64,000 nucleotides of DNA from Imbricaverruca yamaguchii. Its lineage: Eukaryota; Arthropoda; Thecostraca; Neoverrucidae. Location: NCBI GenBank assembly GCA_034440575.1, contig JAOTOL010001659.1, forward strand, positions 4,495,001 through 4,559,000, written 5' to 3'. Made by a program: the position numbers and the translations under genes. The notes under the pieces were generated by a model. That model did not search any database and was not told the DNA's origin. It worked only from the letters and a program-made list of their open reading frames with translations. How positions within the stretch are numbered: the first letter of the stretch is position 1; each line of letters opens with the position of its first letter. Shown piece after piece: positions 12,660-44,200 of this stretch.

Positions 12660-13015
12660 TCGCCGACCACCGCGGTCGTCCACCGCGGTCGTCCACCGTG
12701 GTCGTCCACCGTGGTCGTCGTCGCACGTGCGTCCACCGTGGTCCGGCCCCGTCCCGATCGTCCACTGTCCACCGTGGTCCAGCTCCGTCCCAACCGTCCA
12801 CTGTCCACCGTGGTCCAGCTCCGTCCCGACCGTCCACTGCCCACCGTGGTCCGAACCTGTCCACTGTCCACCGTGGTCCGACCCAGTTCCGATTGCCCAT
12901 ACTGGTCCAGCCCCGTCCAAACCGTCCACTGCGCACCGTGGTCCGACTTCGTCCACTGTTCACCGTGGTCCGACCCTGTCCACTGTCCACCGTGGTCCAC
13001 TGTCCACCGCGTCGG
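12660..13015. repeat. About 36-bp minisatellite abutting the M13 stop codon
   Basis: Variable copies of GTCCACTGTCCACCGTGGTC joined by CC-rich linkers such as CAGCTCCGTCCCAAC. The block comes within about 15 bp of the M13 stop codon, so the 3' UTR would run straight into it. No TTTATT (minus-strand AATAAA) is seen between 10.7 and 13.0 kb. Confidence 0.9.
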
Positions 13016-13026
13016 CCGGACGTGGA

Positions 13027-13129
13027 TCAGACAAAGCCGCCGCACGGGCCGGCTATCACGTGCGCGTGCGTGGCGGTGCAGTTGAACACCTCCCTGAAGG
13101 GCACCGCCTGCTCCACGGTCAGGTCCAGT
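13027..13129 (-). CDS. M13-like gene, coding exon 15 (C-terminus)
   Basis: Acceptor CGTGTTGCAG|A completes AA|A (Lys728). FREVFNC matches neprilysin FSEAFHC (C734). The chain ends PCGGFV and TGA, keeping the last Cys (C746 equivalent) but not the usual C-x-x-W ending. Confidence 0.88.
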
Positions 13130-16100
13130 CTGCAACACGTGTCGGCACGTGTCAGCACGTGGCAGCGTCAGTACGTGCTCTGACATCGTGTGGTGGAGTG
13201 CCGCCTGGCCAGGCCACTAGGACGTGTCACAAGCCGCGGTATGAGGTATGCACCTGGGGCTATCACGGCGGTAGCAGCTCATATCACTGGCTCCAGTGGT
13301 AGTGTGACCATCAATGAACATTTTGCCCGACGCAGTCTAACAGTCAGAGGTAATTAATAACTTAGGAAAAGCGATTCAGGTGCGCTGCGAAAAGTTGGGA
13401 TCATTTAGATACAAAGCAGGAGCACCACCAACTTCGAAACGAAGATGGAATTTGACTTAACTTGACTGGTTGAGCATTTTAGTGCCAAAATCAGAAAATC
13501 ATTCACCAAAAAAAGTTTCTCCACCAGAAAGTTCTGGCTTTTCCAGAAGAAAGGTGTTAGACGAAACAAAACAGGCGTGAGGGAGACAATATCTCGGGAA
13601 TGACATCGGATGTCTGTACTTCGGGGTGATAGGTAACCTTCAAGATCAGATCAAAGTGTCACATTTTTATTTTTAAAAATGAAGACTTCACAATTTGATC
13701 GCTAACGCTTCTTCAACTGCAACAGCTATGCACCTTTTGATTGATAATTTGTGCTCAGGGGCGTGATGACTGCAAGGTCATTTGACGTCCATAGATATGC
13801 ATTTTAAATTAGTATAAAGGTATTTTCGATAGGTTACGGATGTAACGACATATATCGAGCTCCGTGTAAAGCATAAACCACGGGCCAGGTCGGACCAGGT
13901 CAAGGGCTGACCCCGCCTTTGAAACATTGACATAATGTTGCTTAAAATGACTGCCTCCACCCACCTCGGGTAAAACCGAACGATTAAATCGTAGTCAGGG
14001 TCATCTGTGTTCGGTCAAGCTAAATAATGATCATCCGAGGTCAACTTAGAGTCTTAAACAATGATATCAAATAGTCTTGGAATGGTTCAAGAGCAGTGCC
14101 CGAATATCATTGCATCCATCTATTAGCCCACGTGGCATAACATGTGTCACTAGGTCACAATGTCATGCAAAGTTGCGATTATCCACGCTTTAGTTAAAAA
14201 AAGAGTCTGAGGCATTCCTTGTGACATAAGACGTAATGGATCCGCAACCTGACACAACCAAGCGGAACATTTTGCCAAGAGCTCCGAAAACAACGCTCAA
14301 CGGAGTATTGAACATTTCACTGAGTTCTGTTCAGCGGCTCGGAACCCATCGACGACAAACCACAGAGAGGTTGCATCAGCCCCTACCCCTCCGCTGGCGA
14401 GGGTAAAACCTCGAAAAGGATATGTAACCATTCCACGATTATTCTATACTCACTTTCGCTTTCCATCTAATGAAAATGTTGTGAACTCGTCCCAGTGTTC
14501 TTTTTCTTCCGTCTTCTGCTGGCACACGCTCTGAAATAAAACAAACCACGTATGAAACGCGATGTCGCCGCCAAATCGTGGTCGGTCCATTAAGAAAAAC
14601 GCTGGCTGCGCCCATGGTTGCAACTGCCTTGGACACAAATGTGCTTAGTTTCTTTATAGTGTAACTCGACAGGTGTTGAAGTCTTCTTGTTGGGTGACGA
14701 GTATGTGTTATGGAGTTCCGTGGGACCCGATAGACTATGCTGCATAGATATCCATGTTAGTGATGTAGAGATGGTGTAGAGTTCATCAATTGTACAGAAG
14801 CTAAGGAAATCCACAGAATGGCCTCCTCGTCCTCCCCCGACGCGAGATGAGGTCTCCAAGAACACACGTGGCCATGCTGGGTGCCATTGGTTGCAGACAA
14901 TCTTCGCAGCACACACAAGTCCTACCTGACCATAGGCGAGGAAGAAGATTTTCTCGGCGGGCATCGCTTCCAGTCCGGGAAGCTCCTCGTGCCCCACCTC
15001 CTGCAGGTGATTTTCCAACGCCTGAAACATCGGCCAGCACGTGACACGCCGTCCAGCCTGAACACAGCGTGCAAAACCGTGCAGCCGCGGTTCTGTCTGG
15101 GAAACCGCTCAGCTTGGTGCAGTTCGGAAGGGCACGCAGAGCTGGTGCAGGCTGAGAAACTGAGCGGCCCTTGTGCACTCTGGGAAACTGTCCGGTCCTG
15201 GTGCAATCGGCAACACCGTCCGGCACTGATGGAGTCTGGGAAGTCATGCCGTCTTGGTACACCTCGAGGGATCGTCCAACCATGAGGAAGTCACCAGCTT
15301 CCATCATGACATACCTTTTTACGAGAGAACATGTGCTCTCGTAAAACTGGGCAATGCGTTGCCTGGACAACGCATCTGTTCCCTCCACACGGCGTCTAGC
15401 CCCACCTCTGTTCCCTCCACACGGCGTCCAGCCCCATCTCTGTTCCCTCCACACGGCGTCCAGCCTCACCTCTGTTCCCTCCACACAGTGCCCCCGCCTC
15501 TGTTTCCCTCCACACGGCGTCCAGCCCCACCTCTGTTCCCTCCACATGGCGTCCAGCCCCACCCCTGTTCCCTCCACACGGCGTCCAGCCCCACCTCTGT
15601 TCCCTCCACACGGCGTCCAGCCCCACCTCTGTTTCCCTCCACACGGCGTCCAGCCCCACCTCTGTTCCCTCCACACGGCGTCCAGCCTCATCTCTGTTCC
15701 CTCCACACGGCGTCCAGCCCCACCTCTGTTTCCCTCCACACGGCGTCCAGCTCCGCCTCTGTTCCCTCCACACGGCGTCCAGCCCCGCCTCTGTTTCCCT
15801 CCACACAGCGTCCAGCCGCACCTCTGTTCCTCTCCACACAGTGCCCCCATCTCTGTTCCCTCCACACGACGTCCAGCCTCACCTCTGTTCCCCTCCACAC
15901 GGCGTCCAGCCCCACCTCTGTTCCCTCCACACGGCGTCTAGCCTCACCTCTGTTCCCTCCACACGGCGTCCAGCCCCACCTCTGTTCCCTCCACACGGCG
16001 TCCAGCCTCACCTCTGTTTCCCTCCACACGGCGTCTAGCCCCACCTCTGTTCCCTCCACACGGCGTCCAGCCCCACCTCTGTTCCCTCCACACGGCGTCC

Positions 16101-19100
16101 AGCCTCACCTCTGTTCCCTCCACACAGTGCCCCCGCCTCTGTTTCCCTCCACACGGCGTCCAGCCCCGCCTCTGTTTCCCTCCACACAGCGTCCAGCCTC
16201 ACTTCTGTTCCTCTCCACACAGTGCCCCCCACCTCTGTTCCCTCCACATGGCGTCCAGCCTCACCTCTGTTCCCTCCACATGGCGTCCAGCCTCACCTCT
16301 GTTCCCCTCCACACGGCGTCCAGCCCCCCTGCTCCTCTCCACACAGTGCCCCCCGCCTCTGTTCCCTCCACACGGCGTCCAGCCCCACCTCTGTTCCCTC
16401 CACACGGCGTCCAGCCCCACCTCTGTTCCCTCCACATGGCGTCCAGCCTCACCTCCAGCGCTAGTCGGACGGCCAGCACCTGGACGCCGGCAGAGCCGGT
16501 CACCCGGGCCACCCGCTGCGCTGGCACTCCCGACTCGGCCAGTGCCGCCGACACGCACGAGCGGAACGTCTGCTGGTTGTGGCTCATCGTCTGCAGGTCC
16601 TCGCTGGCGTTGCCGCTCCGCGCCAGCAGGTTGGCCGGGTCAATCGACGACAAGATGGCGCCGGCCAACAGAGTTCCCATGCCGCCATATTGAAATTGCC
16701 TGTGGAAGGAGACGCACTGATATGATATGAATACGACGCGTCCTTTGCCGAATTTGTGGTTTTGCAAGTTAAGATATCCTGTCAGGTCAGGGATCTTTGA
16801 CGTAATATGAGGGAACATCGCAAGTCGCCTCTCTCCCCCCCCCCCCTCTCAACAAAAGAATCGCGAGTTATCGGCAATTAGTCTCACTTACTGTACCGAT
16901 GTCATTAATGATGTTTGAAAGAAAGGAAAGTGAGCAATTTTTGCAAAAAAAGACGAAGTCATCTTGGAGGTCACTCAGTGGGCAAAAAGTGTACATTGGA
17001 TGTTAATCGCGAACTGGTGACGTGAAAACACCGGCTGTCCTCTGTTTCTGTTGGCTTTTCTCGCTTGGCAACCTACTCTGGGGGCAATACCTTACATCGC
17101 CCGGTACTGGTAACGGTGACGAAATGTCGTTCATGGGTGATGGTTAACCGCCACAGGACTCGGGCATTATACCACCTTCTGTGGCCCAGGAAGGGGAGAA
17201 GTGTTCCTGCAACACCCCCACCCAGATTTTCGCAGGTACCACGTAAACGGAGGCGGGTTGGCGGGTTCATATTGCCGCACACCTGCAGGTAATCATTGCC
17301 GAACGTTTGGTGCGATACCTGTGGTCAGGTCAGGTCAGGTAAGGTCAAGTATCAACCTGTGACGATTACATAGTGACGGTTCCTCATTTCCCCATTGTAA
17401 GCCGGCAGGTGTGTCGTCAGTACTTCACCACTGTTCTAGAATTAGCTAATCTGTCTGGGATCGCATTGTCGCCGCGCTTGGTTATTTCTAACCTGATGGC
17501 TACAGTATGAAGTGATTTGATTTATTCTAACCTTGTACATTGATCGCTGATATTGTATAAACAACACACCTACTTATCATGAGCCACAAAGTGTTCATCT
17601 TCCGAAAGCACAGCCCCCCCCCCCATACTCCCACCGCGAGACGCTCGGCTGGGCCTGCTCCTATGTATGGTCTTTTTTCCCTCAGTGGCGGAGGACCGGG
17701 AAGGGACAGGCGAAAAGCTGCCTCTCGTCTCCTTCCACTTTGGATGAGAATTTCCCTCAGCCACCCACTCCTGCCCCTACCTCTCAGCCTCTCCTTGAAC
17801 CGCAGCCGTCGGCTTAATGCGTGCATGCTGCCGGCACCCGCACAGGGGTATTTAAAAATGGCGTGTACCTCAACTCTGTGATTCTGTTTCATTATTATAC
17901 CGGAAGTTTGATTGTCGGTGGTAATTGAAAAGAAAACACGACGCATTGATAAAATTGCAACCAGTCTCTACTCCAGGGCGCTTGGCCCGATGGTGCAAAT
18001 CGTGCCTACCAGGTGCGGCGCTATATTCGATGCGAGGGGATTTCCCACGATCCAGCTTGATCCATCAGTAGACAAGAAACTTAACACACAAATACAGACA
18101 AAAATGTTGCAATAAAATGCAAGCCACAAAAGATGATCATGATAAATCGCACCGTCAGCATCCGAAGACTGAAGTACGGTCGGACCAAAGGCTTGCCCTT
18201 GCGGGTGAACCAGCAGAGTGTCTGTGCCGATAGACTCGGAGACAGGTGCGGTGGTCAGGCTTCACACATTATTGTTTTCACCCCTTACTTCAAGCTATCT
18301 CACAACAGTGGGTAGGTGAGGTACACATAACACGTACGGTGGGAAGGTGGGGTACAAGTGTACACCTGACATGCATGGTCAGTAAGAAGGGTACACATGC
18401 AAGCGTACGGTTGGTAGGAGGGGTACACGTGTACACCTACATGCATGGTCAGTATGAAGGGTACACATGCAAGCGTACGGTGGGAAGGTGGGGTACACGT
18501 GTATATGTACGGTGGGTAGGTGGGGTATAAATGTACACGTACGGTGGGTATGTGAGGTATACATGTACATTTGACATGCATGGTGAGTATGTGTGGTACA
18601 CATTTACACGTACGGTGGGTAGGTGGGGTATTTGTTTATTGGTTGGTACACGACACACTTTATGCACATTCACGGCTAATGGCGCCGCCCACACTGTTTC
18701 GCCGGTGGGCCGCGGGATTGGGAAATGCCCTGAGTGGCGCTAGAGTCGAACCCGGGACCTTTGGTACCCATAGCCCGACACCTTAACCACTCGGCCATCC
18801 CCGCCCCGGGGTAGGTGGGGTACACATTTTACGTACAGTGGGTAGTTGGGGCACGCATACATCTCACATGCAAGGTGAGTATGTGTGGTACACATTTACA
18901 CGTACGGTGGATATGTGGGGTCGAAGAGCGGCGGCTGCATCAGCTGGTCGGGTACAACCACGGTGTTCTTCGACTTGCTGTACGCCACCTCAGCGCTGTT
19001 CAGCAGGGGTTCCAGCTCCTGTTCTTGACCTGGAGAAATGAGAGCTGCTCAGTGGAGCATCCAGCCCATGTTCCGGACCTGGAGCATGACTGAGTTCGGC

Positions 19101-22100
19101 GGGGCGCCAGCTCCTGCTCCTAATCTGAGGTATGTGCACTTTTAGCAAGCAATCCATCATCTGCTCCTGACCGGAAGCACGACTAAGTTCAGCGGAGGCT
19201 CCAGCCATTGCTTCTAGCCTGACGCGTACTGGGACGCTTCTGAGTTACTGTTAATCCGCATGATAGGGAATGTTCGAAACTGAGGTTTTTTCGTCCCCAG
19301 CAGCATCGCCTACTGTTGCACGCACTACTGAGCTGCGGACGTGGAACGTAGTCAAGTATTTCTGTCGGCAATATCGCTGAGCTCTCAGACAGATGTGCGC
19401 ACACATTTCAGTAATTAATGACATTTAGCTATCCATCCTCGGCAAATGTGGTTTATTTTTAGAGATATCTCTTGCATCAATGGTTTCACGAATGTTGCGC
19501 TGGCTCTACGTATGCGCTAGGTATAGACTAGTTCGATGGTACTCAGTGGGTGGCTCGGAATATGTAATAAGTGACATGACAACAAACGACAATGACACAT
19601 GTAGCGAGTGGCTCGGCGTATGCAGTGATGTAGTGGGTGGGTCGATGTACGCAATGAGTGACTCGGTGTATGTAGCGAGTGGTTCCATGCATGTGAGTGG
19701 CTCGATGTATGTAATGAGTGGCTCGATGTATGTAATGAGTGGCTCGATGTATGACATGAGTGGCTCGATGTATGACATGAGTGGCTCGATGTATGACATG
19801 AGTGGCTCGATGTATGACATGAGTGGCTCGATGTATGTCATGAGTGGCTCGATGTATGACACGAGTGGCTCGATGTATGACATGAGTGGCTAGATGTGTG
19901 TTGGGCGGCTCGATGTTTGTAGTGAATGGGTCGACGAGTAACGAATGGCGAGCCGCATGGAGTGATTCGAGTACGTAGTGAATTAAGGATTGGAGCAAGT
20001 GAACGGCTCGATGTATGTAGGGTCCAGATGCATGTACTACACTAGCCGTGCAAACATCCGACTATATATCTATCAAAACATCCATGTGCGCATATGCACA
20101 TACCTCGTTAGTAGAGCGCAATGCACGCAAGCTGATGGCTCGAATAATCACGCACAACCCGCATCATTTAAGTGCCTAATCAACATGGTTGAGCGCATGT
20201 GCTGCTATTATTTCTGATGTTCTCACATCATGATTGCAAAGAGGCCTAACCTGGCACAGCGATCAGCTCATGCATTCATCTAACTTCCAGCAGCGATTCG
20301 GACACACCAAGGCTTTAAGCATTGCTGGCAGCCACAAGCCTCCGGCCACATTCAGCTCCCGGTAATGCTCTGCACAAAATTGCCGGCAATTTGAAGCTTA
20401 GCTGCGATCAAACAGGCCATTCAATGCCATACCTGTCCCGGAACGGAAGCGGCGCACAATGGCACCGTTCAGGCTGAATGCCACCCACACGGCTCGGTGT
20501 CGCCCCCTCCCCCCCCCCCCACACAACGGTCGGCTAATCAGCCGCGGCTAAGGCACGCCTTCTGTCCGTCGTTAAGATACCCCAGCTCTATGCATTAGCA
20601 CAACTCAATGGACCGAAGACGCCCGGGGGCGATGCCTCTCTTTAAAATCAGCCCACGTCCGTGTCGAGGCGGACCAGGTTTGTGAATGCTTCAAAAGTAC
20701 TTCCCCGCGCCGCAAATTATGTAGTGTTCATGACCGGTGAAGACGTAGCAAGCACTTTGGCATCCGGACCCATGCAAAAGTCTGTAAGGCATACTAAATC
20801 TTCGTACATTTGCCTCTCATCTTAGCAGACGGAACTTGATGCTCAATGAGTGTAAGGGTTGAAGTTGCTTCAGGTTGCCAATTAGAAGGCACTGCCCCTG
20901 CATTATATGCACCGCCTCTGCAGGCCGTGCTCCTGCACTCAGCACCCTTGGGTTCTGTATTCCTACAGTCAGTACCCCCCCCCCGCGTGTGCATTCCTGC
21001 AGTACAGACGTCAGGTGCTGTGTACAGGACCAAACCCTGGTGTTTACCGCTTATCAGACGTGAGAAAGTGTTCTACAGTATCATTCACTGGCATTTACCA
21101 CGTACCAGGCGCCAGGTACATACCCTGCCGTTCAAGTCACTAACATCTACCACGTACCAGGCGCCAGGTACATACCCTTCCGTTCAAGTCACTAGCATTC
21201 ACCACGTACCAGGCGCCAGGTACATGTTCTGCTGTACCATTCACTAGTATTCACCACGTACCAGGCGCCAGGTACATGGCCTGCTCCACCACGCGCTGAT
21301 GTCGCCGCGCTGCCCGCACGCTGGCGAAGAAGTCGAACCGCAGCACGTCCATGTCGGCGTACACCCTGTCCAGCAGCTTGTCTTCCATCAGCAGCTGCGG
21401 GTAGCCCGCCTGCAGCTGGATCGACGTCACCTGTCCAGCAGCGCCGGCACCGTGACAATGTTGGCAACAGTCGGCAGTGTAGTGACGAGGGGAACATACC
21501 ACATCAAGTTGCAGAAGACAAAGGGCTGGCTGGGTGATGTGAAGTGGGATGGCTGGTTGATGTGGCAAATGTCCTCACTTCTGACGAAGAGATGCCCGAC
21601 TGGATGCCTTATAAATATATCGGTTCTTCAAGACAGCCACTTACGTGTCAATCGCTGCGGATCAAAACGAGTCTTCTAGAACAATCTGGACTGCTACGCG
21701 ATATTAATAGCGCAGCCTATGATACTGAATAACAATACTAACCATCTATTATTGCGACATGGTAATTCTCCCAATGAATTTGTCCAGTTATTTCTAGTCA
21801 TGAACATCTTTTAACAATCCATATCTCCGGGGGATATTTAGGAACCCACAGATGGACCCCGCATTTGCTGGCATAGCTGTGATGTCACAGAGGCCAGGAG
21901 TAGAGTATGGTGAAAACTGTTGCACTTTATACTGTTGTATGTGGGGCGGGGATGGCCGAGTGGTTAAGGTGTCGGGCTATGGGTACCAAAGGTCCCGGGT
22001 TCGACTCTAGCGCCACTCAGGACATTTCCCAATCCCGCGGCCCACCGGCGAAACAGTGTGGGCGGCGCCATTAGCCGTGAATGTGCATAAAGTGTGTCGT

Positions 22101-23196
22101 GAACCAACCAATAAACAAACAAAACAACATACTGTTGTATGTTGTGAAACTTAATAGAAAGCAGTTCAGGCAGTCAAGACTGTCGTCTCACGAGATGCAA
22201 ACAACTTCCTGATAGGCGCTGTTTTTCGCCTAAAAAAACTTAATTTCGGGACGTTGCGTAACATTTCAGGTCGTCAAGGAGAAATTTCGGACCAATTATC
22301 AAACAGTGTATTGTAATCAGGAGAAAAAGGCGCATTTAACTTTATTTCGAAAATTTAAGCACAAAATTGTCGAAAATTTTAGTCCCGAAAAGCTTGAAAC
22401 TTAACTTCCAAATGTTTCAACCATTTCTTCCTCGAATATGGAGATCACACTTAAGAAGTGATTATAAGTAAATTTAGGTTTGAAAAGAAGCAAACGGCTT
22501 GGCCAATAGTTATGATTTTAGTCCACGATGAAGAAAGATGTCATCAAAAAATCAAAACTAAAAAAAAAAAGATATCGTAGTTTTCCTTCTTGCTTTGCGA
22601 TAAGCAATCCCGGACAATTCCGTGCGAAAATGTGTATTCCGGAATGCGTGACACCTTCTTTCAAAATCAAATGGAGGTGATCTTGCTTAGTCAGCCGCAA
22701 GTGAGTGGCCTTCAGTCACTTGACCCAACTGTTAGTTTTATGTCATGCGAAATTGATATGGGACAAATTGTGCACAGTATGGAGCGATTATTAAACTAAG
22801 GGGAAAGGGAAGATTTCCGCCTTCCTCGGCCGGGCGAGGATGAAGTCCTAATTCATACCAACTATTTAATCCATAAAACAGCATAAGAGAGCAATAACAA
22901 TTACACGTGGTTACAACGTTGGCCTTAAAGCCATGGAGACACCTTTTCGAGGTGCAAAAGCACGATCCATTTTATTATCTTCCCACCGCCTAGAAGAATT
23001 TCGTTGCGACGCCACTGCAGATATATAGACGACTCCAGCTGAAAGATTCCACGCCCCCAAAAAAAGTTAAACCATAAAAAAGAAAAAAAAAAAAAACAAC
23101 GTTGGCCTTAAAGACTTGGAGACACCTTTTCGAGGTGCAATAACACGCCCCCTTTTTTTTTCTTCCCCCCCCAAAAAAAATTTTGTGGCCACCTCA

Positions 23197-23246
<50 letters not shown>

Positions 23247-26200
23247 TGCCTTTCCTGCTTCTGAATAGCCGATGACAGGGGCTGCGACACCACCACCAAA
23301 TGCCCCCCCCCCCCTCCCCACATCTGTACAGCCGCCACTCACCCTCGCTGCCTCCCGCCTTCCCAGCATAACTCCACAGGGCCTTCACGACTGTCCCTGT
23401 CTCCACCTCCGTGTTGTTCCCTGCACTTGCATTCTCCAACGTTCTCAGCTCTAACTTCTTCACTTCACACTGGCACCACCTGGGTGGTGTCAGTCTCTAC
23501 CTGGCTGGTGATCCACCTGATGTATGATACTGGCGCATGTGTGGTATGACTCACCTGCTGTATGCTACTGGTGAGGGTGTAATATGCCTCACTTGTTGAT
23601 GACGCTAGTGTAGCTATGGTATGACCCACCTGCTGTATGACACTCGAGGATGTGGTATGACCCACCTGCTGTATGACACTCCTGCGTGTGGTGTGGCCCA
23701 CCTGCTGTATGACACTCCTGCGTGTGGTATGACCCGCCTGCTGTATAACACTTCTGGGTGTGGTATGACCCACCTACTGTATGACACTCCTGGGCGTGGT
23801 GTGACCCACCTGCCGTATGACACTCGAGGGTGTGGTATGGCCCACCTGCTGTATGACACTCCTGGGTGTGGTATGACCCACCTACTGTATGACACTCCTG
23901 GGCGTGGTGTGACCCACCTACTGTATGACACTCCTGGGCGTGGTGTGACCCACCTGCCGTATGACACTCGAGGGTGTGGTATGGCCCACCTGCTGTATGA
24001 CACTCCTGGGTGTGGTATGACCCACCTACTGTATGACACTCCTGGGTGTGGTATGACCCACCTACTGTATGACACTCCTGGGCGTGGTGTGACCCACCTG
24101 CCGTATGACACTCGAGGGTGTGGTAAGGCCCACCTGCTGTATGACACTCGAGGGTGTGGTATGACCCACCTGCTGTATGACACTCCTGCGTGTGGTGTGG
24201 CCCACCTGCCGTATGACACTCGAGGGTGTGGTATGGCCCACCTGCTGTATGACACTCCTGGGTGTGGTATGACCCACCTACTGTATGACACTCCTGGGCG
24301 TGGTGTGACCCACCTACTGTATGACACTCCTGGGCGTGGTGTGACCCACCTGCCGTATGACACTCGAGGGTGTGGTATGACCGACCTGCTGTATGACACT
24401 CCTGGGTGTGGTATGACCCACCTACTGTATGACACTCCTGGGTGTGGTATGACCCACCTACTGTATGACACTCCTGGGCGTGGTGTGACCCACCTGCCGT
24501 ATGACACTCGAGGGTGTGGTATGGCCCACCTGCTGTATGACACTCGAGGGTGTGGTATGACCCACCTGCTGTATGACACTCCTGCGTGTGGTGTGGCCCA
24601 CCTGCTGTATGTCACTCGAGGGTGTGGTATGACCCGCCTGCTGTATACCACTCCTGGGTGTGGTATGACCCACCTGCTGTATGTCACTCGAGGGTGTGGT
24701 ATGACCCGCCTGCTGTATACCACTCCTGGGTGTGGTATGACCCACCTGCTGTATGACACTCGAGGGTGTGGTATGACCCGCATGCTGTATGACACTCCTG
24801 CGTGTGGTGTGACCCACCTGCTGTATGACACTCCTGGGCGTGGTATGACCCACCTGCTGTATGACACTCCTGGGCGTGGTGTGACCCACCTGCTGTATGA
24901 CACTCCTGGGCGTGGTGTGACCCACCTGCTGTATGACACTCGAGGGTGTGGTATGACCCACCTGCTGTATGACACTCCTGGGCGTGGTGTGACCCACCTG
25001 CTGTATGACACTCCTGGGCGTGGTGTGACCCACCTGATGAATGACACTCCTGGGTGTGGTGTGACCCACCTGCTGTATGTCACTCGAGGGTGTGGTATGA
25101 CCCGCCTGCTGTATGACACTCCTGAGCGTGGTGTGACCTACCTGCTGTATGACACTCCTGGGTGTGGTATGACCCACCTGCTGTATACCACTCCTGGGTG
25201 TGGTATTACCCACCTGCTGCACGACGCTGGCGCGGTTGGCATCGTCGATGAAGCGCGTGTAGGTGAGCGTGCCGCCCAGACACTGCGTCAGCGAGCGGAA
25301 CACTGCCTGGACGGCCGACCTGCGCCCTTGGCGGGACTCGACGGACTCGTCTCGCGCCAGCAGCGCGCCGCTGGCCAGCGGGAAAAACTGGCGCGTGATC
25401 CTGGTGCAGGTGAGCCAGTGCGGCGGCTTCCTGACAACACCTGCGACCGTACGACAGCGTACATGTCAGACAATGGGGCGGACTGCTGACAAAACCTGCG
25501 GCCGTACGACAGCGTACGTGTCAGTCAATGGGGCGGACTGCTGACAAAACCTGCAGCCGTACCACAGCGTACATGTCAGACAATGGGGCGGACTGCTGAC
25601 AAAACCTGCGGCCGTACGACAACGTACATGTCAGTCAATGGGGCGGCTTCCCTACAAAACCTGCGGCCGTACGACAACGTACATGTCAGACAATGGGGCG
25701 GACTGCTGACAACACCTGACATGTCAGACAATGTGGCGGACTGCTGACAAAACCTGCGGCCGTACGACAGCGTACATGTCAGACAATAGGGCGGACTGCT
25801 GACAAAACCTGCGGCCGTACAACAACGTACATGTCAGTCAATGGGGCGGACTGCTGACAACACCTGCGACCGTACGACAGCGTACATGTCAGACAATGGG
25901 GCGGCTTCCTGACAACACCTGGGAGGGCCTGTCACGACATACAGCGCACATTTGAGCCATTTGGACTCCCGACTAGCGCCGTGAGAACGTCATTGGCGAC
26001 ATTATGTCACGGTCGAGTGTAATAGAGTCCAATGGTGGCTGGTGAGGTCTTTCAAGGTGGAACGTGGCAAAGTATTATTCAGGTCTGGTCAGATCGGGTG
26101 GAGGAAAGGTTCGTGAGGTTAGATGCCCATGATTATACTCGGCTAAGCCCTGGTTTAGCTTCCCATGAAATTAAAGCGCCTACAATTCTTCAATGAGTAT

Positions 26201-32200: not shown

Positions 32201-35200
32201 AGGAGTCCCGTTGCCCATTACATGAACTATGGCTACATCACGAAAAGTAGGTCTTATTCGCCAATAGATTACGGCACCTGCCACTACCATTTCTTGTTCG
32301 TTTGTTTCTCACATAAAGGCCAGGAAGTATAAGCTGCTTCACCCGCTACGGTTTTATCCCAGACCGCCCACCCTATCCACTGAAGAAAAAAACACAAATA
32401 TTTATACGATTGCGAAGCTGGGCAGATGGCATGCAATGCTATTGGGACCGTAAATGTGGGAATATGACGGGAGTTTTCTATGAAGAGCAGTAGAACCGAG
32501 AAGATTATCTATCATCGTCAGGGCAAGGCACGGAGCATCTAAACATCTTCCATTACTCGTGATGGCAGAAGCGACAGCAATGCAGTTAACCATGAGCATC
32601 CCGAATTTAAAGTGTGCACCTAAACGAGCCACACAAACATAAATGAAAAGGCTTTTCATGTGGGAATGTGGCGGTGATTACCTGCGGCGACTCCTTGCGC
32701 AGCCAGTTGACGGTGACATGGCGCGGCGACCTGGTCGGGTCACGCAAGGTCAGCGGGTCGAGCGACGCCTCCACCAGCCGCTTCTCGTAGTTGAACATAT
32801 TCTCGGCGAAGCGGCTGGCGCGGTCGGTGGTGGCCCCCAGCCGAAGCAGCACGTCCTGTATGAAGCGCTGGTACGTGGTGACCACCTGGCGGCCGACACG
32901 GGAAACAGTGGAGATCGGTCTGCACGGCGGACTTCCGACAGTATCGGACACAATCTCAGCCGAATTTATTCCCCGGACGCGGAGGCTGGGACCCAGAATC
33001 CGGACCCAATAATCCGAACGCCCATTAAGGTGTCTGGAATATTTATGGCGTTTTATGGGAGGGAACGATCTAAAATCCGCCGTGCTCCCCACACTCACAA
33101 GCTGGTGGGCCTGTCGATGCTCGACGGGGCAGCTGACAGAGAGAATAATGTTCAACCGGACAGCTCGCGAAGATAAAAATGCACAACCTGGCAGCTAGCG
33201 GAGAGGACTATGTACAACCGGACACATTGGCCTCCATTGGACGAGGCTTGAGCACGAACCAAGCTTTGACAAAGAAATTATAGCCACGGAGGGTAAACAG
33301 TCACAGTTAGTGATGAAGCAAACATCGCAAGGGTTGATTCATCCAGCACCATTCTAAAATTAGAAATTGTTTTGAACTCGAGCGCAGATTGCGGCGATTC
33401 GATTCCTGCAAAGACAAAAGAAGCTCAATCTCCGATTTCACGTGCTCCTAAATCTTAATTGCTTTCCTGAGTAAACGTACGGCGAACCTCTGAATACGTT
33501 TGACTGCTCATGCGTTGCACACTATCTGATCTCAACCAGCACATAAGATCTGCCGGGAAGAGAGTTGCAACACAACACAGGCCGGCAGCTAGTGCCAGTA
33601 AATGGATGGCAGGCGGCAGTGTGTACGTCATGCGATGCCGAGCTGCCCGAGACGGACTGTTGCTGTGATCGGCAATGCTAATTTTACGTGGACCCGCCCT
33701 GTTGTGCCACATCAAGATATGCAGAGGTGTATTTGGTGTGGTGAGTGCCAAAGCACGACGGAAGACAGCCCGACGAAATTATTGTTGCGACGCAGCTTAA
33801 ATGTGGCAAATATCGGGAAGTTGTGAGCCATCGTACCAGTTAGAAGGCACCAGGTGCGCTACCATGACTTATTGCTGGGAGAGCATATGTCACCGACGGA
33901 TCATGGGAACAGGAGACGGATTGTATGACTGTGACCCCCCCCTCACACCCCTACCCCCAGCAAAAACTCCCACACCAAATATCGTGCACGGTATCGTTGA
34001 AAACGGAAGTGTCATCAGTGTTCTGCTATGTTTACTTACTTATTTTCCTCGCTTCATCTAATCGTCCATAACAGCTACAGTAAACCGCAACAGACGAAGT
34101 CAGAACAGTTGATACGCTCAGGACCTCTATCTTCACTATCAGAATGCATATGCATGAGTATCGATTCAGCCAATTCCTTTGTCACTAACGTTGACTAGGC
34201 GCACGTAGGTCAGAGCACAAACGTGCCGCGCGCACATCCAGCCACAGCATACATATATAAATCAGCCAATCCAGCTTCCAGAGGACCTTGGTCTTTATGA
34301 AGAAATGTGCAGGAAAACGACACTAAAAATGACGCGAAGAAGTTGTTATACTGTTTGTACTGTTTGTTTCAGTGGTGTCGGCTTATCGGGGTGTGGTAGT
34401 TACGGAGCAGTCGTTAGTTAGCGATTGCTATTTTACCGGCTCGTTACTGTCGAGACGTTACCAACTACAAGCCAAAGACAAGGAAAAAAATCATTCGGGC
34501 TGGGATTGCTTCACTGAAAACTTCGACGTCCTAACTAGGATCTCAATGGAGTCGTCTGTGTTCCTTTGCATGTCTTTGAATGAGCTTTCTCTCCCCCATG
34601 TTTGTATTCATTGCTCCCTGAACAATTTCACCTTTAGCATAGAAAACTATTGGATGTGCCATCATGTGCCATCATGTGCCATCATGTGCCATGATGTGCC
34701 ATCATGTGCCACATACGTCTGCACGGCTAGGGAGCGGTGCTGGAATGCCCAACCCCCATGTGCAGCCGACACCATACACCTTATTGCGCTGCATAGTGCA
34801 TACAGCAAGAACCGACTTCACACTGTCTTCGCTCCTCCTATCCGGCGCCGACTCCTTCAGCTTCGACGTGAGGAAACAGTGTTCACCAGCTACGACGAGT
34901 CTGCCTCTGCGGAAGGGTGACGCCCACGGACGCTCGCCCCCTCTCCCCCCCCCCCCACTCCAGACTGTTCCCTCGGAGAGAGCCAGTCGCGTTAGAGCAG
35001 GGCCATAGTCAACAGCGTGTGCAGCCAGATCGTGTATAGTGAACACAGAGAGACTGCGATCTTGTAGTGCATTGAGGACAGACAGTGAGGACTGGGTGTG
35101 GACTGGCACAGTTACGACAGGGGCGAACTACGAGCAGCGGCACTGGCCACTGTTAACGGTGCAGCTTACAGGGTGTCCAGTGTCTAATGTATGCGCGCAC

Positions 35201-38200
35201 GAGCTCGCTCTGGGCGTGTCTAATGACTGTGGTGGCCAACCGCCGCATGCAGACCGCAAAACGCACGTATTGCGCGCGTTGCACGTGTTGCACAGCTACG
35301 TACAGCTATGCACCTGCCTGCGCATACACATACGCACACGAGCGCGCGCACGCATACACGCACAGCTAAGGGACACGGCAGCCACTGGAAGGCGGATAGT
35401 TACGGCGTATCGGAGAAGTTTGTTTCGCAGCGAGAGCAGCGACTGTCTGTGTCGCGTGTCCAGACAGAGTTTGTTAACGTCCATCTTGCCGAATTCCGAG
35501 TATATCGCTCGCAACTGAAATTGTCGGACAGACGCTGAAATTGTCGGACAGAGGCTGTACGCGAGTCGATGCGACCGGGCGCTGTTGGGACCCCGCCCCC
35601 TCGCCCTCATGTATGGTGTACAACAGCAACAATGCCGCCTTAGTTCGTATATGCAATCCAAGTTCCGCCTGACGCTAGGCTGTACGAAACGACGCACATC
35701 TAAACATGTGTGTCTTGTATGCACTTGTATGCACTGTAAGGATCATTTCTCACCACATCGATGCTGATTCGTCTCCTATGCTGCTGAGAATTAAGCCGGG
35801 ACCCACGGAGTTTCCCCATGCTTGACAGTGCCTAAGCTAATAAATGCGCTGCCTGCGAGCGATTTTACATCACTTCACCTGTGGATCTAACTAGACAATG
35901 AGCGGACCTCAGGACCGGCACGTGCCGTGGAGAAGAACTGCCGTCAGCTGATGCCTGTACACTGTACAGGCATCAGCACTGTACAGTGTACAGTGCCAGT
36001 CGCAGAGACGTGCATTGGCCACCACCTTCGTGGAGCGGGGCCACGGCCGTACGAGTCTGACTTGGATCAATTGGTACTTCGGTCCGAGATCAGATGGAAC
36101 ACGTGCTTGGCGAGGAAAACGACTGAAAGAGAAATTGTACTGACTTACATCTGGCATTTATTTTAGGAATCCGGATTGCTAGCGTCCTAGCAGCACAGTC
36201 TTCCGGTTGTCGGTATCTGTAGCTGAAGCAAAATAACCACAGCACCATGTTCCGGCTGCGATACACGAACACATGATTAACGTTTGGCTCTCATGTACTG
36301 TGGCTACGTCAGGAGTGTGTCAAGTGCAATGCTACGCGGCGCCGGGTCTGGGAGGCGCGTGCACTCCTGATCAGACAGGAGCTAAGGATCTGCCTTTCCA
36401 CCGCGGTCCGTTTAATCCGCTCTGGTCACCGTGCTCTGTGCGATGGCCGCTCAGGAGCCAGCTGTGAAATAGCCCTGCGGCTGTCTCGCGCCTCGCCGCG
36501 GGCCGGCTACATACCTGGTCGTCATGGCTACGGAAGTAGAAGCCGCGTTCGGGAAGTCCGACACCGCCTGGCGCCACCTGCGGTCAGTCCGTGGTGAGAT
36601 CAGCGGTCTGGAGGGGGGGCGGAGGGGGAGTCTGGGGCGAGATCAGGGTCGGAGTGGGGGGGCGAAGTGGCCTGGGGTCGGGGGGGGGGGGATCAGCGTC
36701 CTGGGATCGGTGAGATAGGGAGTCAGGGGCGATATCGCGCCTGGGATCGGGGGATGGATCACCGTCTTGGGATCGGGGATGAGATCGGGTGGAGTCGGGG
36801 GCGATATCTGGCCTGGGGTCGGGGGACAGCACTGTTCGCGGTCAGGGGCGCGATCAACGTCCGGAGGTCGGGGGCGAGATCAGCAGCATAAGGTGGGGGG
36901 TGGGGGATTAACGACCTGGAGCTAGCGGCGCACCAATGTCCCAATATTACAGCCATCGGCACCTGGATCATCGAGGGTTTCCCTGGATTCAACAGAACCC
37001 TGGTGATGATCGAATTGGTCTTGCATTAGGATCTCCACCCTCCTCCCAGATAAACAGCAGGCGTCACCACTGAATCAGCACCTCCACCCTTTGTTCCGGT
37101 GCACACGTCTGGCGTTAGTAGCGTCCAGCTGGCAACATTGCTGACATCATACAGTTTTGTACAAATCAAGACCGTATCTCATCCTTTCAGACTCCAGACT
37201 TACTGAACAGATAGTTACTAGAGCAACGTAGCGAGAGCTACCAGTAGCCCTCATTTGATATCTCATTTTGTCATAAGTGAACTCGACATCCTTCTTCTTC
37301 CGCCCAAACCTACACAGCAAAGCTGGAGATCTCTCACCAAGCCAGAGGGTCCAGGTTCTTATTTTCAGATCTATATTTTCAGATTAAATGGGGGAAATTA
37401 CAAATTAGCATACGCATACGCACACGCACACAAACACACAAATAAAACGCACACACTAGCACACAATCTACCTGAAATAGCGTCATTCATACCTGTCAGA
37501 TTCCGCGTGCTCCACCCGTGCAGCTCAACCAGGTAGGTATTCAACTAGGTAGCAACGGTTACCTGGGTGATATTGGCGTCTGTCGGACGGTTACCAGTTT
37601 GACGTCGGTGTCTGTCGGACGGTTACCAGTTTGACGTCGGTGTCGGTCGGATGGTTACCAGTTTGACGTCGGTGTCGGTCGGACGGTTACCAGTTTGACG
37701 TCGGTGTCGGTCGGATGGTTACCAATTTGACGTTGGTGTCGGTCGGTCGGTTACCAGTTTGACGTCGGTGTCGGTCTGACGCTTACCTGGATGATGTTGG
37801 CGTCGGCGCCATGCTGGTGTGGGTCCGGCACCACGCTGACGCGGAAGAAGACGTCGATGTGGTGTTCGGCCTGCAGCTGGCGCACCACCGACTGCGGGTT
37901 CCAAACCTGGCGCTCGAACGAGCCCACCGCGTCGAACCCGCCTGCAACGGAGAAAGTGCAGCCAATGCCGACACCAGGCCAACACCGGCACCAGCTCACG
38001 ACACCCGACCAACACCGGCACCAGCTCACGACACCCAGACCAGCACCGGCACCAGCTCACGACACCAGACCAACACCGGCACCAGCTCACGACACCCAGA
38101 CCAGCACCGGCACCAGCTCACGACACCAGACCAACATCGGCACCAGCTCATGACACCAGGCCAACACCAGTGCCACCTCCCGTTATCACATCAACACCAA

Positions 38201-41200
38201 TATCACCTCCCGTCACCAGCCTTACCAACACTAATGTCGCCTCCGGTCACCAGACCAACACCAATATCGCCTCCGGTCACAAAACCAACACCAATATCGC
38301 CTACAACAGCAGTACATCGACTCCAACAGCAGAAAATATGTCTCTCGTTAGATAGTGATGACTATTACGAACCTCAGTTGGACTCTATCAGTCTACCAAC
38401 GTTGCTCATTCCTTTTTTCTGCGATATATATTAACCTTGAAGAAATCCGCCAACCAGCTACAGCACGCGGCTCGGACAGGGAATTAGAGCACCGACCGCC
38501 GGTTGGGTACCACCAGCAGAAACTACCCGCAACTGGAAATGTCGTATTTCACACGCACGCAGGTTTTCGGCTCATTTCAACGACATCGCGTGCCACAAGT
38601 TGTTGCCACACGCGACTTGAAACACCGCTGGTATTCGAGCTCCGGGATGTGGCCGACCACCACCCCACACCCGATCAGCGGGTGTTTCGCCCGCTGCTGC
38701 GCCAGCAACTAACTGCACGGATGCAGAGCAAGCCAGCAGCATGACTCATGCACGTGTGTGTTGGTAGTGATACCTGCACCGCCCAAGCCCGCGCTGCTGC
38801 CGCTAATGCCTCGCGGTCTCATGTGCCACCGATTGCAACTGAGCCGGCGGAACACGTCGCTATTGGACTATGTGGACTCCACTCCTGTGGACTTTACGCC
38901 CAGAGTCCACATGGGAGGAGTGCAGTGCTGGTGAACTCCAGGTCCACCACCACGCGACGTGGTGGCGATTGGTCGTGCACTCTCGCCGTTGGAAGGCTCA
39001 TCCCAGCTTCATCGGCAAATGAAGGTGGCCGCGGGGTTGTCGCTGCCATTCAGGCGTGGGCTCCGTTACCACGGGGATTTAGGGGGTGGGAGCGGCGCGT
39101 GAATGGCGCATTTGAACCACCCAGCAGTGTGGTGAATCTTTTTTCAGAGTTCCTGATACAGTTTTTCATCGTCCGGCTATGATCTGTGCCTCTCGATCGG
39201 AGTATCAAGCACGATTTCTGCCAACTTCAGTCTTCTTACAAGAACAATTCTTACGAGGAAAATAGCTTGTTTAAACTTTCAGTGGAACTTTTGCTTCATG
39301 GCTGTAGTTTATCATGCAAATATTTGCACATTGTAGAGAGAGCATAATCAGAAGCAAATAAATATACGTAGTTGCATATCCGAAAGGTGTGCTTGAACAA
39401 ATAACGAGCGATACAAATATGTTTCGGAACCCACATATTACCGAAATGGCCTTCACTACCGTGTCTATAAATAATACGTAATTATATAACAATGGTTCCA
39501 TGGTATCGGCACACATAACACTTAGCATAACTCACATAGCTTAGTTCAGACATCTGGAGTCGCATGACTTCACTGGTCAGTTGGTGTGCTTGTTCGGACA
39601 CCATCGACACCACCATTAGCATCACTCCATTCCTGGCTACCCCATTCGAAGACTATTGACGCCACCGTTAGCATCACTCTTTCCTTAAATACCTCATTCT
39701 AACACCAACTACATCCAAACTGGTGATGATAATGCATCACCAGCTTCCTGGCTACCTGGTTCGCAAACTATACTTAACAATGACCAGTGACATGCTATGC
39801 TGTTCTGCTCTGTGCTGCCATATCGATGAATAGAGTAATGCCATCTGAATTGCGGACAACGATCACTCAAATAATGCACCACAGATGACGCAATACTACA
39901 AGCGTATGCTTTTTAATATCTACCGAACGTAGATACTTTAAAAATGGGACATCACGGGTTGGCTTGGGACACCGCAAATCAACCCGCCAAATAGCGCCAC
40001 ATAGCGCCATATAGCGCCACCACACAACTGTACAACATACACCCCGCTTCTACAGGATGGGACACTACAGGCAAAGCCACCATACTACGCGAGGACGCGT
40101 AGTATGGTGATATATTCCGCATTGATCCCAATTTCCGCATTGATCACACAAAATGCACCCACAGCTACCTTCTCACAAACTCTCCATGGCCCATCTGCAA
40201 CACCTGCAAGCGTACCACCAACTATCGAGCATTGCTCAATGCTCCTCCATTGTTCAAATACACATTGCGGCGGCATACATTCGCGTACCATTGCAACATC
40301 CGCAACATTCCCTCCGCTATCTCCAGCATGCCAATTACTCGGTGAATCGCACACCACTGTCTGACTTCTTTTCACTTAAAATTATTCACTTCACACTTGT
40401 AAATCTCGGACAAGAAAGAAAAGAATAAAATCGAACGTCGATGAAAGCATGTTATCGAAACGTTCTCAAAAGGAAAAACGTGACAACAGTGCAAAACATG
40501 AGCAAACGACACAAAAGGCACGGGGAAACGAATAAAAAGAAAAAGAAGGAAAAAAACGAGGTTGATGGAAATCATTTCGAAGCCATGTGCGTAGAATTGC
40601 ATAGCACGACTGTTCTTAATGTAACCTCACCCAGTCCCCGCTCCCAAGCTACCAGCACGGCCGATATGACGGCAAGATGGCAAGCGCCCAGCCGACAAAA
40701 AGGAATAGTTTCGCTGATGCTTAGTTTGAGTGACTCACGAACAACATACGTCCTGGTATGACAATAATGCATACGTGGAATACCCATCGGCGGAGGAACA
40801 CCCATAATTATGAGGGACACTGGGCAGTTATAAGGCCTGTTGTTTTCAGTGAACGCCACAGAATCCATGTTAAATTTCTGGATATAATAAGTGCGCCCGA
40901 TGCGCCCACTTCGTTTCACCGCCAACCGTCATACAATCGTCTGCATTTAACCGATAACAAGTACGGATTTGCCACCAATACCAGGGGAAGGTGCGAGTTT
41001 GAATAGCTGTGACTTAGCTCGATGACTGAGAATGCCCAGAGACATGCCAGTCTGTGGTGGCCACAAAAGCAACCGCCCCATTGGGAGATCACGGCATTCA
41101 CATCCTATCCGCAGCTGATTACGCCATATTCAGTCTAGTTAGTTATTTCAGTTTAAGGGCGCTTCGACCAAAATGCCATATTCAATCTAACGACACTGAG

Positions 41201-44200
41201 CCGCCGATCCGATTACTCTTGCCGTTTCCCTTGATCATTTGCTACAGCTGTCCCCGCTGCAAACATGACACCGGCTCCAATATCACCCGGACATCGGCCA
41301 CAAGATCAGCTCGGCGTCTGTCGCAAGAGCAGCGGGGCACGCGCTGCGGCGTCGGCGGGTCCGCCACCGCATGTCCGAATTCCGTCACACAACATCGGCG
41401 CCTCCCGTCGCAAGAGCGGCCGCGTGTCCGTCACGACACCCGGCGGCGGACGTGACGACGCGTGACGGGCACGTGCGGCCGCCTCGTGGGCGGGCGCGGC
41501 CACGTTAAATCAGGCGCAGCAAACCACCGCGGACGCGGCCGGGCCCGCGGCGCGTCGGTTCCCCGCCGCCGACGTCGGCGGCGCGCGTGACGCGTGACGC
41601 GTTGGCCGCGACGCGCCATCGATCAGCGCGTGGCGGTATCGTCCGGCGCGGTGCCGTCGGAAATAGCGATGACTAAGGCGGAAAGTCGGGCAGCACACAG
41701 ACACGTGTCAGTTGAGCCGGGCAACAGACACACACGTGTCGGTTGAGTCGGGCAACAGACACACACACGTGTCAGTTGAGCCGGGCAGCGGACACACACA
41801 CGTGTCAGCTGTGTCGGGCAGCAGACACACACGTGTCAGCTGAGTCGGGCAACAGACACACACACGTGTCAGTTGAGTCGGGCAACAGACACACACACAC
41901 GTGTCACCTGAGTCGGGCAACAGACACACACAGGTGTCAGCTGAGTCGGGCAACAGACACACACACGTGTCAGTTGAGTCGGACAAGAGACACACACACG
42001 TGTCAGTTGAGTCGGGCAACAGACACACACACGTGTCAGTTGAGTCGGGCAGCGGACACACACACGTGTCAGCTGAGTCGGGCAGCGGATGCACACACAT
42101 GTCAGTTGAGTCTGGCAACGGACACATACGTGTCAGTTGAATCGGGAAACAGACACGCTCGTGTCAGTTGAGTCGGGCAACAGACCGACGCCGGCGATGT
42201 CCGGCGCGAGTGGTTGGTTATTAAACCAGTATAAACCGCTGTGTCATCATACGGTACGACACACGCGACCGTTGAGTTGGACAACAGCACACACGCACGT
42301 CTCATTCGCGCCGATTGGTCGCGGACGAAGAGTAGCGACAGGTGAGACTTTAACCCACAACCTTTCGACTGTGAGTCGGACAAGCAGACTTACCCGTAGA
42401 CTAGTTCGGTCCCCGGCGGTCCGGCGCGAGTGCGCTGTCCACCCACCCATGCTGTTGATGATGGCGACGAGGTTGTTGGCGAGCTCAGAGCGGTCAGGGT
42501 TGGACGCGCGATCCATGCAGCCTCGGTAGAAGGCGTCCAGCTTCCACCTGTAGGAGCGGGACGAGATCTCGTGCGGCAGTGTCGACAGTATCCTCTGGAG
42601 ACGCTGCTCGGCTGTAACCGTCCGATCAGGTCAGGTCAGATGAGACAGTATCCTCTGGAGACGCTGCTCGGCTGTAACCACCCGATCAGGTCAGGTCAGA
42701 TGAGACAGTATCCTCTGGAGACGCTGCTCGGCTGTAACCACCCGATCAGGTCAGGTCAGATGAGACAGTATCCTCTGGAGACGCTGCTCGGCTGTAACCA
42801 CCCGATCAGGTCAGGTCAGATGAGACAGTATCCTCTGGAGACGCTGCTCGGCTGTAACCACCCGATCAGGTCAGGTCAGATGAGACAGTATCCTCTGGAG
42901 ACGCTGCTCGGCTGTAACCACCCGATCAGGTCAGGTCAGATGAGACAGTATCCTTTGGAGACGCTGCTCGGCTGCAACCACCCGATCAGGTCAGGTCAGC
43001 TGAGACAGCATCCTCTGGAGACACTGCTCGGCTGTAACCGTCCGATCAGGTCAGGTCAGATGAGACAGTATCCTCTGGAGACGCTGCTCGGCTGTAACCG
43101 TCCGATCAGGTCAGGTCAGATGAGACGGTATCCTCTGGAGACGCTGCTCGGCTGTAACCGTCCGATCAGGTCAGGTCAGATGAGACAGTATCCTCTGGAG
43201 ACGCTGCTCGGCTGTAACCACCCGATCAGGTCAGGTCAGATGAGACAGCTGTCTGCTGTCTGGCCGGGAGGCCATGCCAGGTCGGATCGGGTCGGGCCAG
43301 ATGTTCATACGAGGTCAGATCAGCACACAAATGTTGAAATCCCGAGCAGACAGCTGAGTACATTGCAACGTATTGTGACCTAATTATTTTGAACATTACC
43401 CAGCACAGTGTTCGAGTTAATGTGTGTGATGTTTAACATTGCCGATACACGGAGGCTGAAATGAGTGAACGCAACATTAAAACTGATCAGTTGAAATGTT
43501 TTGTAGTTTATAGAATACAGCGTAGAATCTAAATATAGACCTACGCTCTGTGCTCCACTTCCTTGCTGAAATGGGTGAATGCAACATCAAAATAGGCTTG
43601 CTGGAATGTGTTGTGGTTCATAGAATGCGGTATGGAATATATATGTATAGGCTTACACTATCTGCGCTTCATTCCCTGCTGACCTGAATGCATCAGCCAC
43701 TCAGTACGTGACCTGAGTAAGGCAGCTGGTTGATGGCTTGTGACCTCAGTGCAGCAGCTGGTATATGACTGGTCTTAGTCCACCAGTTGGTCAGTGGTTC
43801 TGACACAAGTGCAGCAGCTGGTCGGTGACTGACCTGCATACAGCAGCTAATCGATGACTGACCTGAGTACAACAGCTGATCGGTGACTGACCTGAGTACA
43901 ACAGCTGATCGGTGACTGACCTGAGCACAACAGCGGGTCGGTGACTGACCTGAGTACAACAGCTGATCGGTGACTCCCCATTGGCTGTGTATGTCCGGCA
44001 CGGGGTTTTCGCGGAGCCACACGGAGCACGTGTGTTCCCAGAATGAGTCGCACGCCCGGTCATCGCCGCCGGCGATACTTGACTGAAGCTGGAGGCACAT
44101 AGATACACACACATGGTCATTGATGAGGGGTACACACACACACACACACACATACGGTCACTGCTGAGGAACACACAGACAGGCACACACGGTCACTGCT

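What the first reader, a model, noticed from the sequence alone, without database searches (positions are those of the whole stretch)
15373..43979. Splice sites of the M13-like gene are built into tandem-repeat units
Seven of 14 donors (exons 2, 4, 8, 9, 10, 11, 12) and two, perhaps three, of 14 acceptors (exons 3, 9, possibly 11) lie inside a minisatellite unit that also carries adjoining exon bases (4-28 nt). Introns therefore open or close with many copies of their own junction. Periods differ (29, 31/32, 32, 36, 52, 55, 60 bp), so these are independent events at each site, not one repeat family. Minisatellites are common in this genome, but chance overlap at this rate looks unlikely. Possible explanations (inference) are replication slippage or double-strand-break repair seeded at exon edges, transcription-linked expansion, a route of intron growth, or splice-site redundancy.
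Basis: partly seen in the sequence, partly recalled or inferred. Interest (0 to 1): 0.92.

Follow-up and report, generated by a model that had tools for sequence, protein, structure and literature searches.

The report
Barnacle exon edges copied into introns
In a barnacle gene, nine and probably ten of the 28 predicted exon-intron borders are repeated two to about 45 times inside the neighbouring intron, in most cases with a scrap of coding sequence in every unit; the same is seen in conserved metabolic genes of this genome, and it likely arises by DNA slippage that splicing is predicted to hide, so introns would grow from their exon edges.

Summary
Confirmed, and wider than the finding claims. 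The window holds a 15-exon barnacle M13 peptidase-like gene (minus strand, 759 aa); a spliced alignment to the Amphibalanus protein reproduces introns 2-14 exactly. Junction copies lie in the junction's own intron at 9 of 28 junctions (7 donors, 2 acceptors) against 4 of 364 tests in other introns; the exon 11 acceptor is a decayed tenth. Seven of 28 intron arrays cross a junction; random seeds predict 0.93.

In five other genes of this genome (51 introns) 11 of 102 junctions are duplicated (control 1 of 976), and 10 of 69 arrays cross a junction against 3.0 expected (P 6e-4), or 5.6 under a stricter null (P 0.047). Without ECE, added after a draft look: 6 of 51 against 1.8 (P 0.008) or 3.6 (P 0.14). 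Units carry codons identical in E. coli, so copying ran from exon to intron. Relatives' proteins show no insert, so the exon-proximal copy is probably the one spliced. Redundancy found no support.

The kind is known ('mirages' in lancelets); a barnacle case is apparently new. Likely: slippage across a junction, silent because splicing keeps the outer copy, then growth into the intron. True hotspots are only moderately supported.

The parts
13027..56226 (-). M13 peptidase-like gene, coding span, 15 exons (hi-lo): 56226-55942, 44082-43950, 42611-42447, 37941-37787, 36577-36515, 32885-32682, 30286-30159, 29128-29025, 25440-25214, 21430-21262, 19029-18906, 16699-16453, 15021-14926, 14530-14454, 13129-13027
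   Evidence: introns 2-14 reproduced by spliced alignment to P0001
43808..43975 (-). exon 2 donor array, 29 bp unit of which about 26 nt are exon; junction 43950|43949
   Evidence: TRF; 6 further copies, all with GT
42584..43248 (-). exon 3 acceptor array, 11 units of 60 bp with 28 exon nt (AEQRLQRILS); CTGTC at both breakpoints; junction 42611|42612
37578..37787 (-). exon 4 donor array, 32 bp unit; the outermost copy is the most exon-like (16/18)
28789..29040 (-). exon 8 donor array, 44 bp unit plus a longer unit, 16 exon nt; junction 29025|29024
25431..25921 (-). exon 9 acceptor array, 55 bp unit with homology to up to 37 exon nt (GVVRKPPHWLTCT); outermost copy 31/37
23539..25219 (-). exon 9 donor array, 36 bp unit, 45 further copies, 39-40 with GT
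21085..21284 (-). exon 10 donor array, 52 bp unit, about 21 exon nt (YLAPG)
18992..19260 (-). exon 11 acceptor, decayed array with units of about 42-52 bp, up to 38 exon nt; limits approximate
18333..18921 (-). exon 11 donor array, unit about 32 bp, 16 exon nt; interrupted by a SINE-like element at 18631-18807
15375..16455 (-). exon 12 donor array, 32 bp unit starting 3 nt inside the exon (weakest exon share)

Best explanation
These are junction-spanning minisatellites ('mirages'): short stretches straddling a predicted exon-intron border were tandemly duplicated, likely by slippage between short direct repeats, and are predicted to be harmless because splicing would keep using the copy nearest the exon. 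The extra copies then sit in the intron, expand and drift there, so the intron grows from its exon edge inward. Shown: the arrays, their position across predicted junctions, exon-to-intron copying, and proteins of relatives without any insert. Inferred: slippage (one array has matching breakpoints), the choice of splice site in RNA, and the growth in time. Minisatellites fill 3-35% of the intron sequence of the genes examined, so such events are frequent; exon edges also appear to seed more of them than their length predicts, by about 1.8 to 3.3 fold in the five other genes.
For: Own-intron copies at 9 of 28 junctions against 4 of 364 controls. In five other genes 11 of 102 against 1 of 976. 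Polarity: the PGI intron 8 donor has 10 listed further copies with 29-34 of 34 exon bases, 8 of 10 encoding HNPISGGKHH; GLDC units carry AVYHGP, GMGPIG and GFHAPT, identical in E. coli GcvP (GFHAPT in 7 of 11 acceptor copies); ECE units carry the start of exons for WDMTP and AEEM; M13-like units carry PPHWLTCT-like, PTYP-like and AEQRLQRILS codons. No insert at the array-bearing junctions in Amphibalanus P0001, nor in the JGI protein P0003 (2,026-nt contig) at those it covers, exon 8 onward. The E3 array breakpoints share 5 nt (chance 0.0005). The outermost copy is the most exon-like in 2 arrays (E4, E9 acceptor), the boundary-copy pattern reported for lancelet mirages. Exon share of the unit shows no preferred register (10 arrays, KS P 0.42). 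Crossing arrays: 17 of 96 in six genes against 3.85 expected (P 1e-7) or 7.14 under the strict null (P 4e-4).
Against: No RNA from this species. The NEP2 gene (11 introns, 23 arrays) has no duplicated junction. Under plain coverage, junctions are not more often inside arrays than other intron positions. The strict null leaves the five genes at P 0.047; ECE joined that set after a draft of it had already shown flagged junctions, and without it and MUT the figures are 6 of 51 against 1.84 (P 0.008) or 3.60 (P 0.14). 43 of 93 extra donor copies match U1 at least as well as the used one, so donor strength does not explain why the outer copy would win. Breakpoint microhomology was tested formally in one array only. 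The boundary-copy pattern is absent or tied in the other arrays.
Confidence: 0.78

Rival explanations
1. Tolerance only: seeds fall everywhere at one rate, those inside exons are removed by selection, and junction-straddling ones survive because they are silent; exon edges are not special.
For: Array density in introns is high; random intron positions are in repeats as often as junctions (172 of 670 against 9 of 28); under the strict null the five genes give 10 against 5.6, and three of them 6 against 3.6, P 0.14; NEP2 has none.
Against: Null A gives 10 against 3.0 (P 6e-4) in the five other genes and 17 against 3.85 overall; even the strict null gives 17 against 7.14, P 4e-4, with the window gene included. 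GC matching does not remove the excess in the window gene.
Confidence: 0.4
2. Splice-site redundancy: arrays are kept because extra donors or acceptors back up the real one.
For: 95 of 103 copies found by alignment keep GT or AG; 43 of 93 donor copies match U1 at least as well as the used donor.
Against: GT columns in the largest array are not specially conserved (ranks 11 and 27 of 36). Only 24 of 93 donor copies, 20 of them in the E9 array, and 0 of 22 acceptor copies would keep the frame without a stop; all 10 E3 acceptor copies bring a stop.
Confidence: 0.06
3. Array first, exon later: splice sites moved into older intronic minisatellites, so the exon ends derive from repeats.
For: Array and exon share sequence, which alone has no direction.
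Against: The shared part includes codons for residues identical in E. coli GcvP (AVYHGP, GMGPIG, GFHAPT) and residues invariant among the barnacle rows compared.
Confidence: 0.03
4. Intron birth by tandem genomic duplication: each intron is itself a duplicated exon piece.
For: Tandem duplication is a described source of new introns (PMC4974935, abstract in search listing).
Against: In the window gene the junction copies lie towards the end of the intron that bears that junction, and no junction word of one end was matched at the other; 79% of the intron sequence lies outside arrays.
Confidence: 0.03

Closest known systems
Lancelet (amphioxus) 'mirages': minisatellite-like tandem duplications of exon-intron boundaries in Adh3, globin BflGb6/BflGb9, TnC and PGBD5 (PMC3087553 section 16 read; PMC3902484 one passage and section 16 read; the original 2002 Adh paper is not held)
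   Same: Units span 5' or 3' splice sites and include exon bases; many copies keep AG/GT; unit lengths vary by site; the protein seems undisturbed.
   Different: Barnacle instead of chordate; nine or ten junctions of one gene at once and up to 45 further copies; also in conserved metabolic genes; no RNA or haplotype data here.
Intron gain by tandem genomic duplication (Rogers model; potato RdRp case, PMC4974935, abstract in search listing only)
   Same: Tandem duplication involving splice signals.
   Different: Here existing introns are lengthened at one end; the duplicate does not make up the intron.
Ordinary intronic minisatellites (VNTRs)
   Same: Tandem units of 10-100 bp, drifting and homogenised.
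   Different: The unit includes exon sequence and the splice junction itself.

Membership tests
mirage minisatellites | tandem repeats that span an exon-intron boundary and carry exon bases | tested here: met
   9 of 28 junctions plus one decayed; 11 of 102 in five other genes
mirage minisatellites | both 5' and 3' boundaries can be affected | tested here: met
   7 donors and 2-3 acceptors in the window gene; both kinds among TRF crossings in GLDC, PGI and ECE
mirage minisatellites | many copies keep AG/GT signals | tested here: met
   95 of 103 copies found by alignment
mirage minisatellites | boundary copies excluded from homogenisation | tested here: inconclusive
   outermost copy most exon-like in the E4 and E9 acceptor arrays, tied in E3 and E8, not so in the rest
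mirage minisatellites | normal splicing is not disturbed (RT-PCR) | not testable with these tools
   only indirect: colinear proteins of relatives
mirage minisatellites | length instability between haplotypes or somatic | not tested
   one assembly only
intron gain by tandem genomic duplication | donor-side unit reappears at the acceptor, the intron being one duplicate | tested here: not met
   window gene
introner-like mobile introns | one sequence family shared by many introns | tested here: not met
   4 of 364 cross-intron matches in the window gene and 1 of 976 in five other genes; junction words only

The most novel reading that the evidence does not exclude
Exon edges are preferred birthplaces of minisatellites across barnacle genomes: coding ends are copied again and again into the adjoining intron, so introns grow from their ends inward out of exon sequence. 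This would be a genome-wide process, convergent with lancelets, that leaves rows of ready-made splice sites for new isoforms and shifted exon ends.
Probability: 0.45. Interest if true: 0.78.

Novelty: new member of a known kind. Interest (0 to 1): 0.62.

Why it matters
How introns lengthen, and why splice sites survive next to unstable repeats, are open questions. Here exon ends themselves are the source, at 11 of 102 junctions of five other genes and 9 of 28 of the window gene (P 0.014 for the difference). The link between minisatellite instability and splice junctions, known from lancelets, becomes testable in a second animal phylum. It also warns gene annotators that such introns can offer dozens of near-identical splice sites. 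The E9 donor, whose 36-bp copies keep the frame, predicts isoforms longer by steps of 12 residues.

Tried and rejected
The first array null and later exact versions agree in direction. TRF on the reverse complement gives 27 arrays instead of 28 for the window gene, again 7 crossings. A plain coverage comparison does not show an excess and is reported as evidence against.

Paralog drafts made with the distant protein P0004 were dropped from the pooled count because some 'exons' looked forced inside arrays: C1262 (6 of 28 junctions flagged, 8 array crossings; later replaced by a model from P0125, whose 11 introns all recur with P0126), C1426 (4 of 32; 2 crossings against 1.15), C1242 (4 of 42; 5 against 3.47), C913 (0 of 20, no intron arrays). 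So ECE entered the pool after a first look; the count without it is. For NEP2, P0005 and P0007 agree on the first 10 of 11 introns; the last differs by an alternative last exon. The third intron of the MUT 5' piece was dropped for lack of aligned residues beyond it; MUT was read only in two 5-kb pieces. CTP synthase matches as one open frame. The aconitase search did not complete. Two of the 11 duplicated junctions (GLDC donor 12, MUT donor 4) are at the threshold score of 12.

A possible E2 acceptor copy (score 11, 3.4 kb away) was rejected as not tandem. ARAGORN found no tRNA. One scan of viral contigs gave no match. The copy tally (108 of 117) was entered by hand and partly picked by motifs that require GT, so I use instead. 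In one search my printed split of the GLDC intron 13 acceptor copies was one base off; one search repeats it correctly. The base-composition line was printed before that script stopped.
Full report
What is there. The minus strand of the window carries a 15-exon gene for an M13 peptidase-like protein of 759 residues, one open frame from start to stop with GT-AG introns throughout (Pfam PF05649 and PF01431). By its closest proteins the host is a barnacle: the best full-length relative is from Amphibalanus amphitrite (60%), the next from Pollicipes pollicipes (73% over 61% of the query). The species itself was not determined. The window lies in a 767-Mb assembly. A spliced aligner that I wrote, given the Amphibalanus protein and the stretch from exon 2 on, finds introns 2-14 at exactly the same bases (13 of 13), so the junctions do not rest on my own reading alone.

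The observation. TRF, which knows nothing of exons, places 28 arrays (unit >=10 bp) in the introns; 7 run across a junction into an exon. Random placement of array seeds in the same introns predicts 0.93 (exact P 1.3e-5); matching seeds for GC gives 1.0-1.1 (P 3-6e-5), although exons are GC-rich (65% against 50% in introns outside arrays). Independently, a 28-base word centred on each junction recurs in the junction's own intron at 9 of 28 junctions, against 4 of 364 tests in the gene's other introns. The exon 11 acceptor adds a decayed array with 27/38, 18/24 and 21/32 matching exon bases in three of four listed copies. The E12 and E4 crossings are thin by TRF (3 and 1 exon bases); E4 gains weight from its outermost copy (16/18 exon bases), E12 does not.

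Result against. If one asks only whether a junction lies inside repeated sequence, 9 of 28 is no more than for random intron positions (172 of 670, P 0.51). I prefer the seed null because tandem expansion inserts copies and pushes flanks apart; it cannot spread an array over an exon. The choice of null matters for the word 'hotspot', not for the existence of junction-spanning arrays.

Other genes of the same genome. The finding was picked by a reader, so I tested further genes. With E. coli GcvP, Pgi and ScpA and barnacle NEP2 and ECE proteins I located and modelled GLDC (14 introns), PGI (9), methylmalonyl-CoA mutase (6 introns, two pieces), NEP2 (11) and ECE (11). Of 102 junctions 11 are duplicated in their own intron (control 1 of 976); 10 of 69 arrays cross a junction against 3.0 expected (P 5.9e-4), or 5.6 under a strict null that counts only unique intron sequence and units of at least 40 bp (P 0.047). 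By gene: GLDC 5 of 28 junctions, ECE 3 of 22, PGI 2 of 18, MUT 1 of 12, NEP2 0 of 22; one GLDC and the MUT case are at the threshold score. With the window gene the total is 17 of 96 arrays against 3.85 (P 1e-7) or 7.14 (P 4.5e-4). So the structure recurs in this genome, and the window gene is at its rich end (9 of 28 against 11 of 102, P 0.014).

Direction. PGI intron 8 opens with at least 10 further copies, period 41 bp, each with 29-34 of 34 bases of the exon end, 8 of 10 encoding HNPISGGKHH. GLDC arrays carry AVYHGP, GMGPIG and GFHAPT (the last in 7 of 11 acceptor copies, the other 4 reading GFHALT), and these residues are identical in E. coli GcvP. In the window gene the exon 9 acceptor unit encodes a near copy of GVVRKPPHWLTCT (outermost copy GVVRKPPHCLTCT) and the exon 3 unit AEQRLQRILS, positions that are colinear in the barnacle relatives that cover them. 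Coding sequence was therefore copied into introns, not the reverse.

How it likely works. The exon 3 array (11 units of 60 bp, mean 2.1 differences between units) has CTGTC at both breakpoints, one in the intron and one in the exon; two random breakpoints there share 5 or more bases with chance 0.0005. That is what slippage or microhomology-primed duplication across the junction would leave; only this array was tested so. The exon share of the units runs from 0.09 to 0.90 without preferred register (10 arrays, KS P 0.42), as expected if any short stretch can be the seed. The proteins of relatives run through the array-bearing junctions with no insert, so the copy next to the exon is probably the one used; this is inference, as no RNA of this species was seen. 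Later the array drifts: a SINE-like element with a 99% identical inverted second copy 3.1 kb away has split the exon 11 donor array.

Function. In the 45-copy exon 9 donor array the GT columns are not specially conserved (ranks 11 and 27 of 36), and only 24 of 93 donor copies and 0 of 22 acceptor copies would keep the frame without a stop. I see no sign of selection for spare splice sites. The exon 9 donor is the exception in consequence: with a 36-bp unit, 20 of 45 copies would extend the protein in frame.

What is known. Lancelet genes have the same thing under the name 'mirages': Adh3, two globins, TnC and PGBD5 (PMC3087553 section 16; PMC3902484 one passage and section 16). The mechanism was called unclear there, and intron gain was proposed as a consequence. 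Full-text searches for minisatellites, tandem repeats and splice sites or introns, and for barnacles with minisatellites, tandem repeats or introns showed no report of it in a barnacle or other arthropod in their listings, several of which were capped at 15-20 papers. In the Pollicipes and Balanus improvisus genome papers I saw passages only, which do not mention it. The library is open-access only, so this is not proof of absence.

Verdict. Real, found again in other genes of the same genome, a new member of a known kind, with a moderate case that exon edges seed repeats beyond chance.

Noticed in passing
16453-16699 (exon 12): The M13-like protein lacks HExxH (the zinc motif of active M13 enzymes, recalled), as do its three barnacle-like relatives P0001-P0003; probably an inactive paralog shared by these barnacles. 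The five paralog drafts keep an HExxH.
   Followed up: partly
18631-18807 and 21943-22119: Two 177-nt copies of a SINE-like element (so judged by eye) in opposite orientation, 99% complementary; a similar stretch is visible near 44600-44790. One sits inside the exon 11 donor array.
   Followed up: partly
4665-5390, plus strand: Single open frame weakly like juvenile hormone binding protein (PF06585, E 1e-4, below the curated cut-off).
   Followed up: partly
12667-13008: A GC-rich array begins about 18 bp beyond the stop codon of exon 15: repeats hug the coding end there too, without a splice site.
   Followed up: no
24461-25465, minus strand: The exon 9 donor array, 36-bp unit, stays open in frame with exon 9 for about 250 residues; possible alternative isoforms.
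   Followed up: partly
L009:7148-7477 and 8175-8513 (NEP2 gene, C1424): Two nearby pieces, both matching the M13 C-terminus, look like alternative last exons.
   Followed up: no
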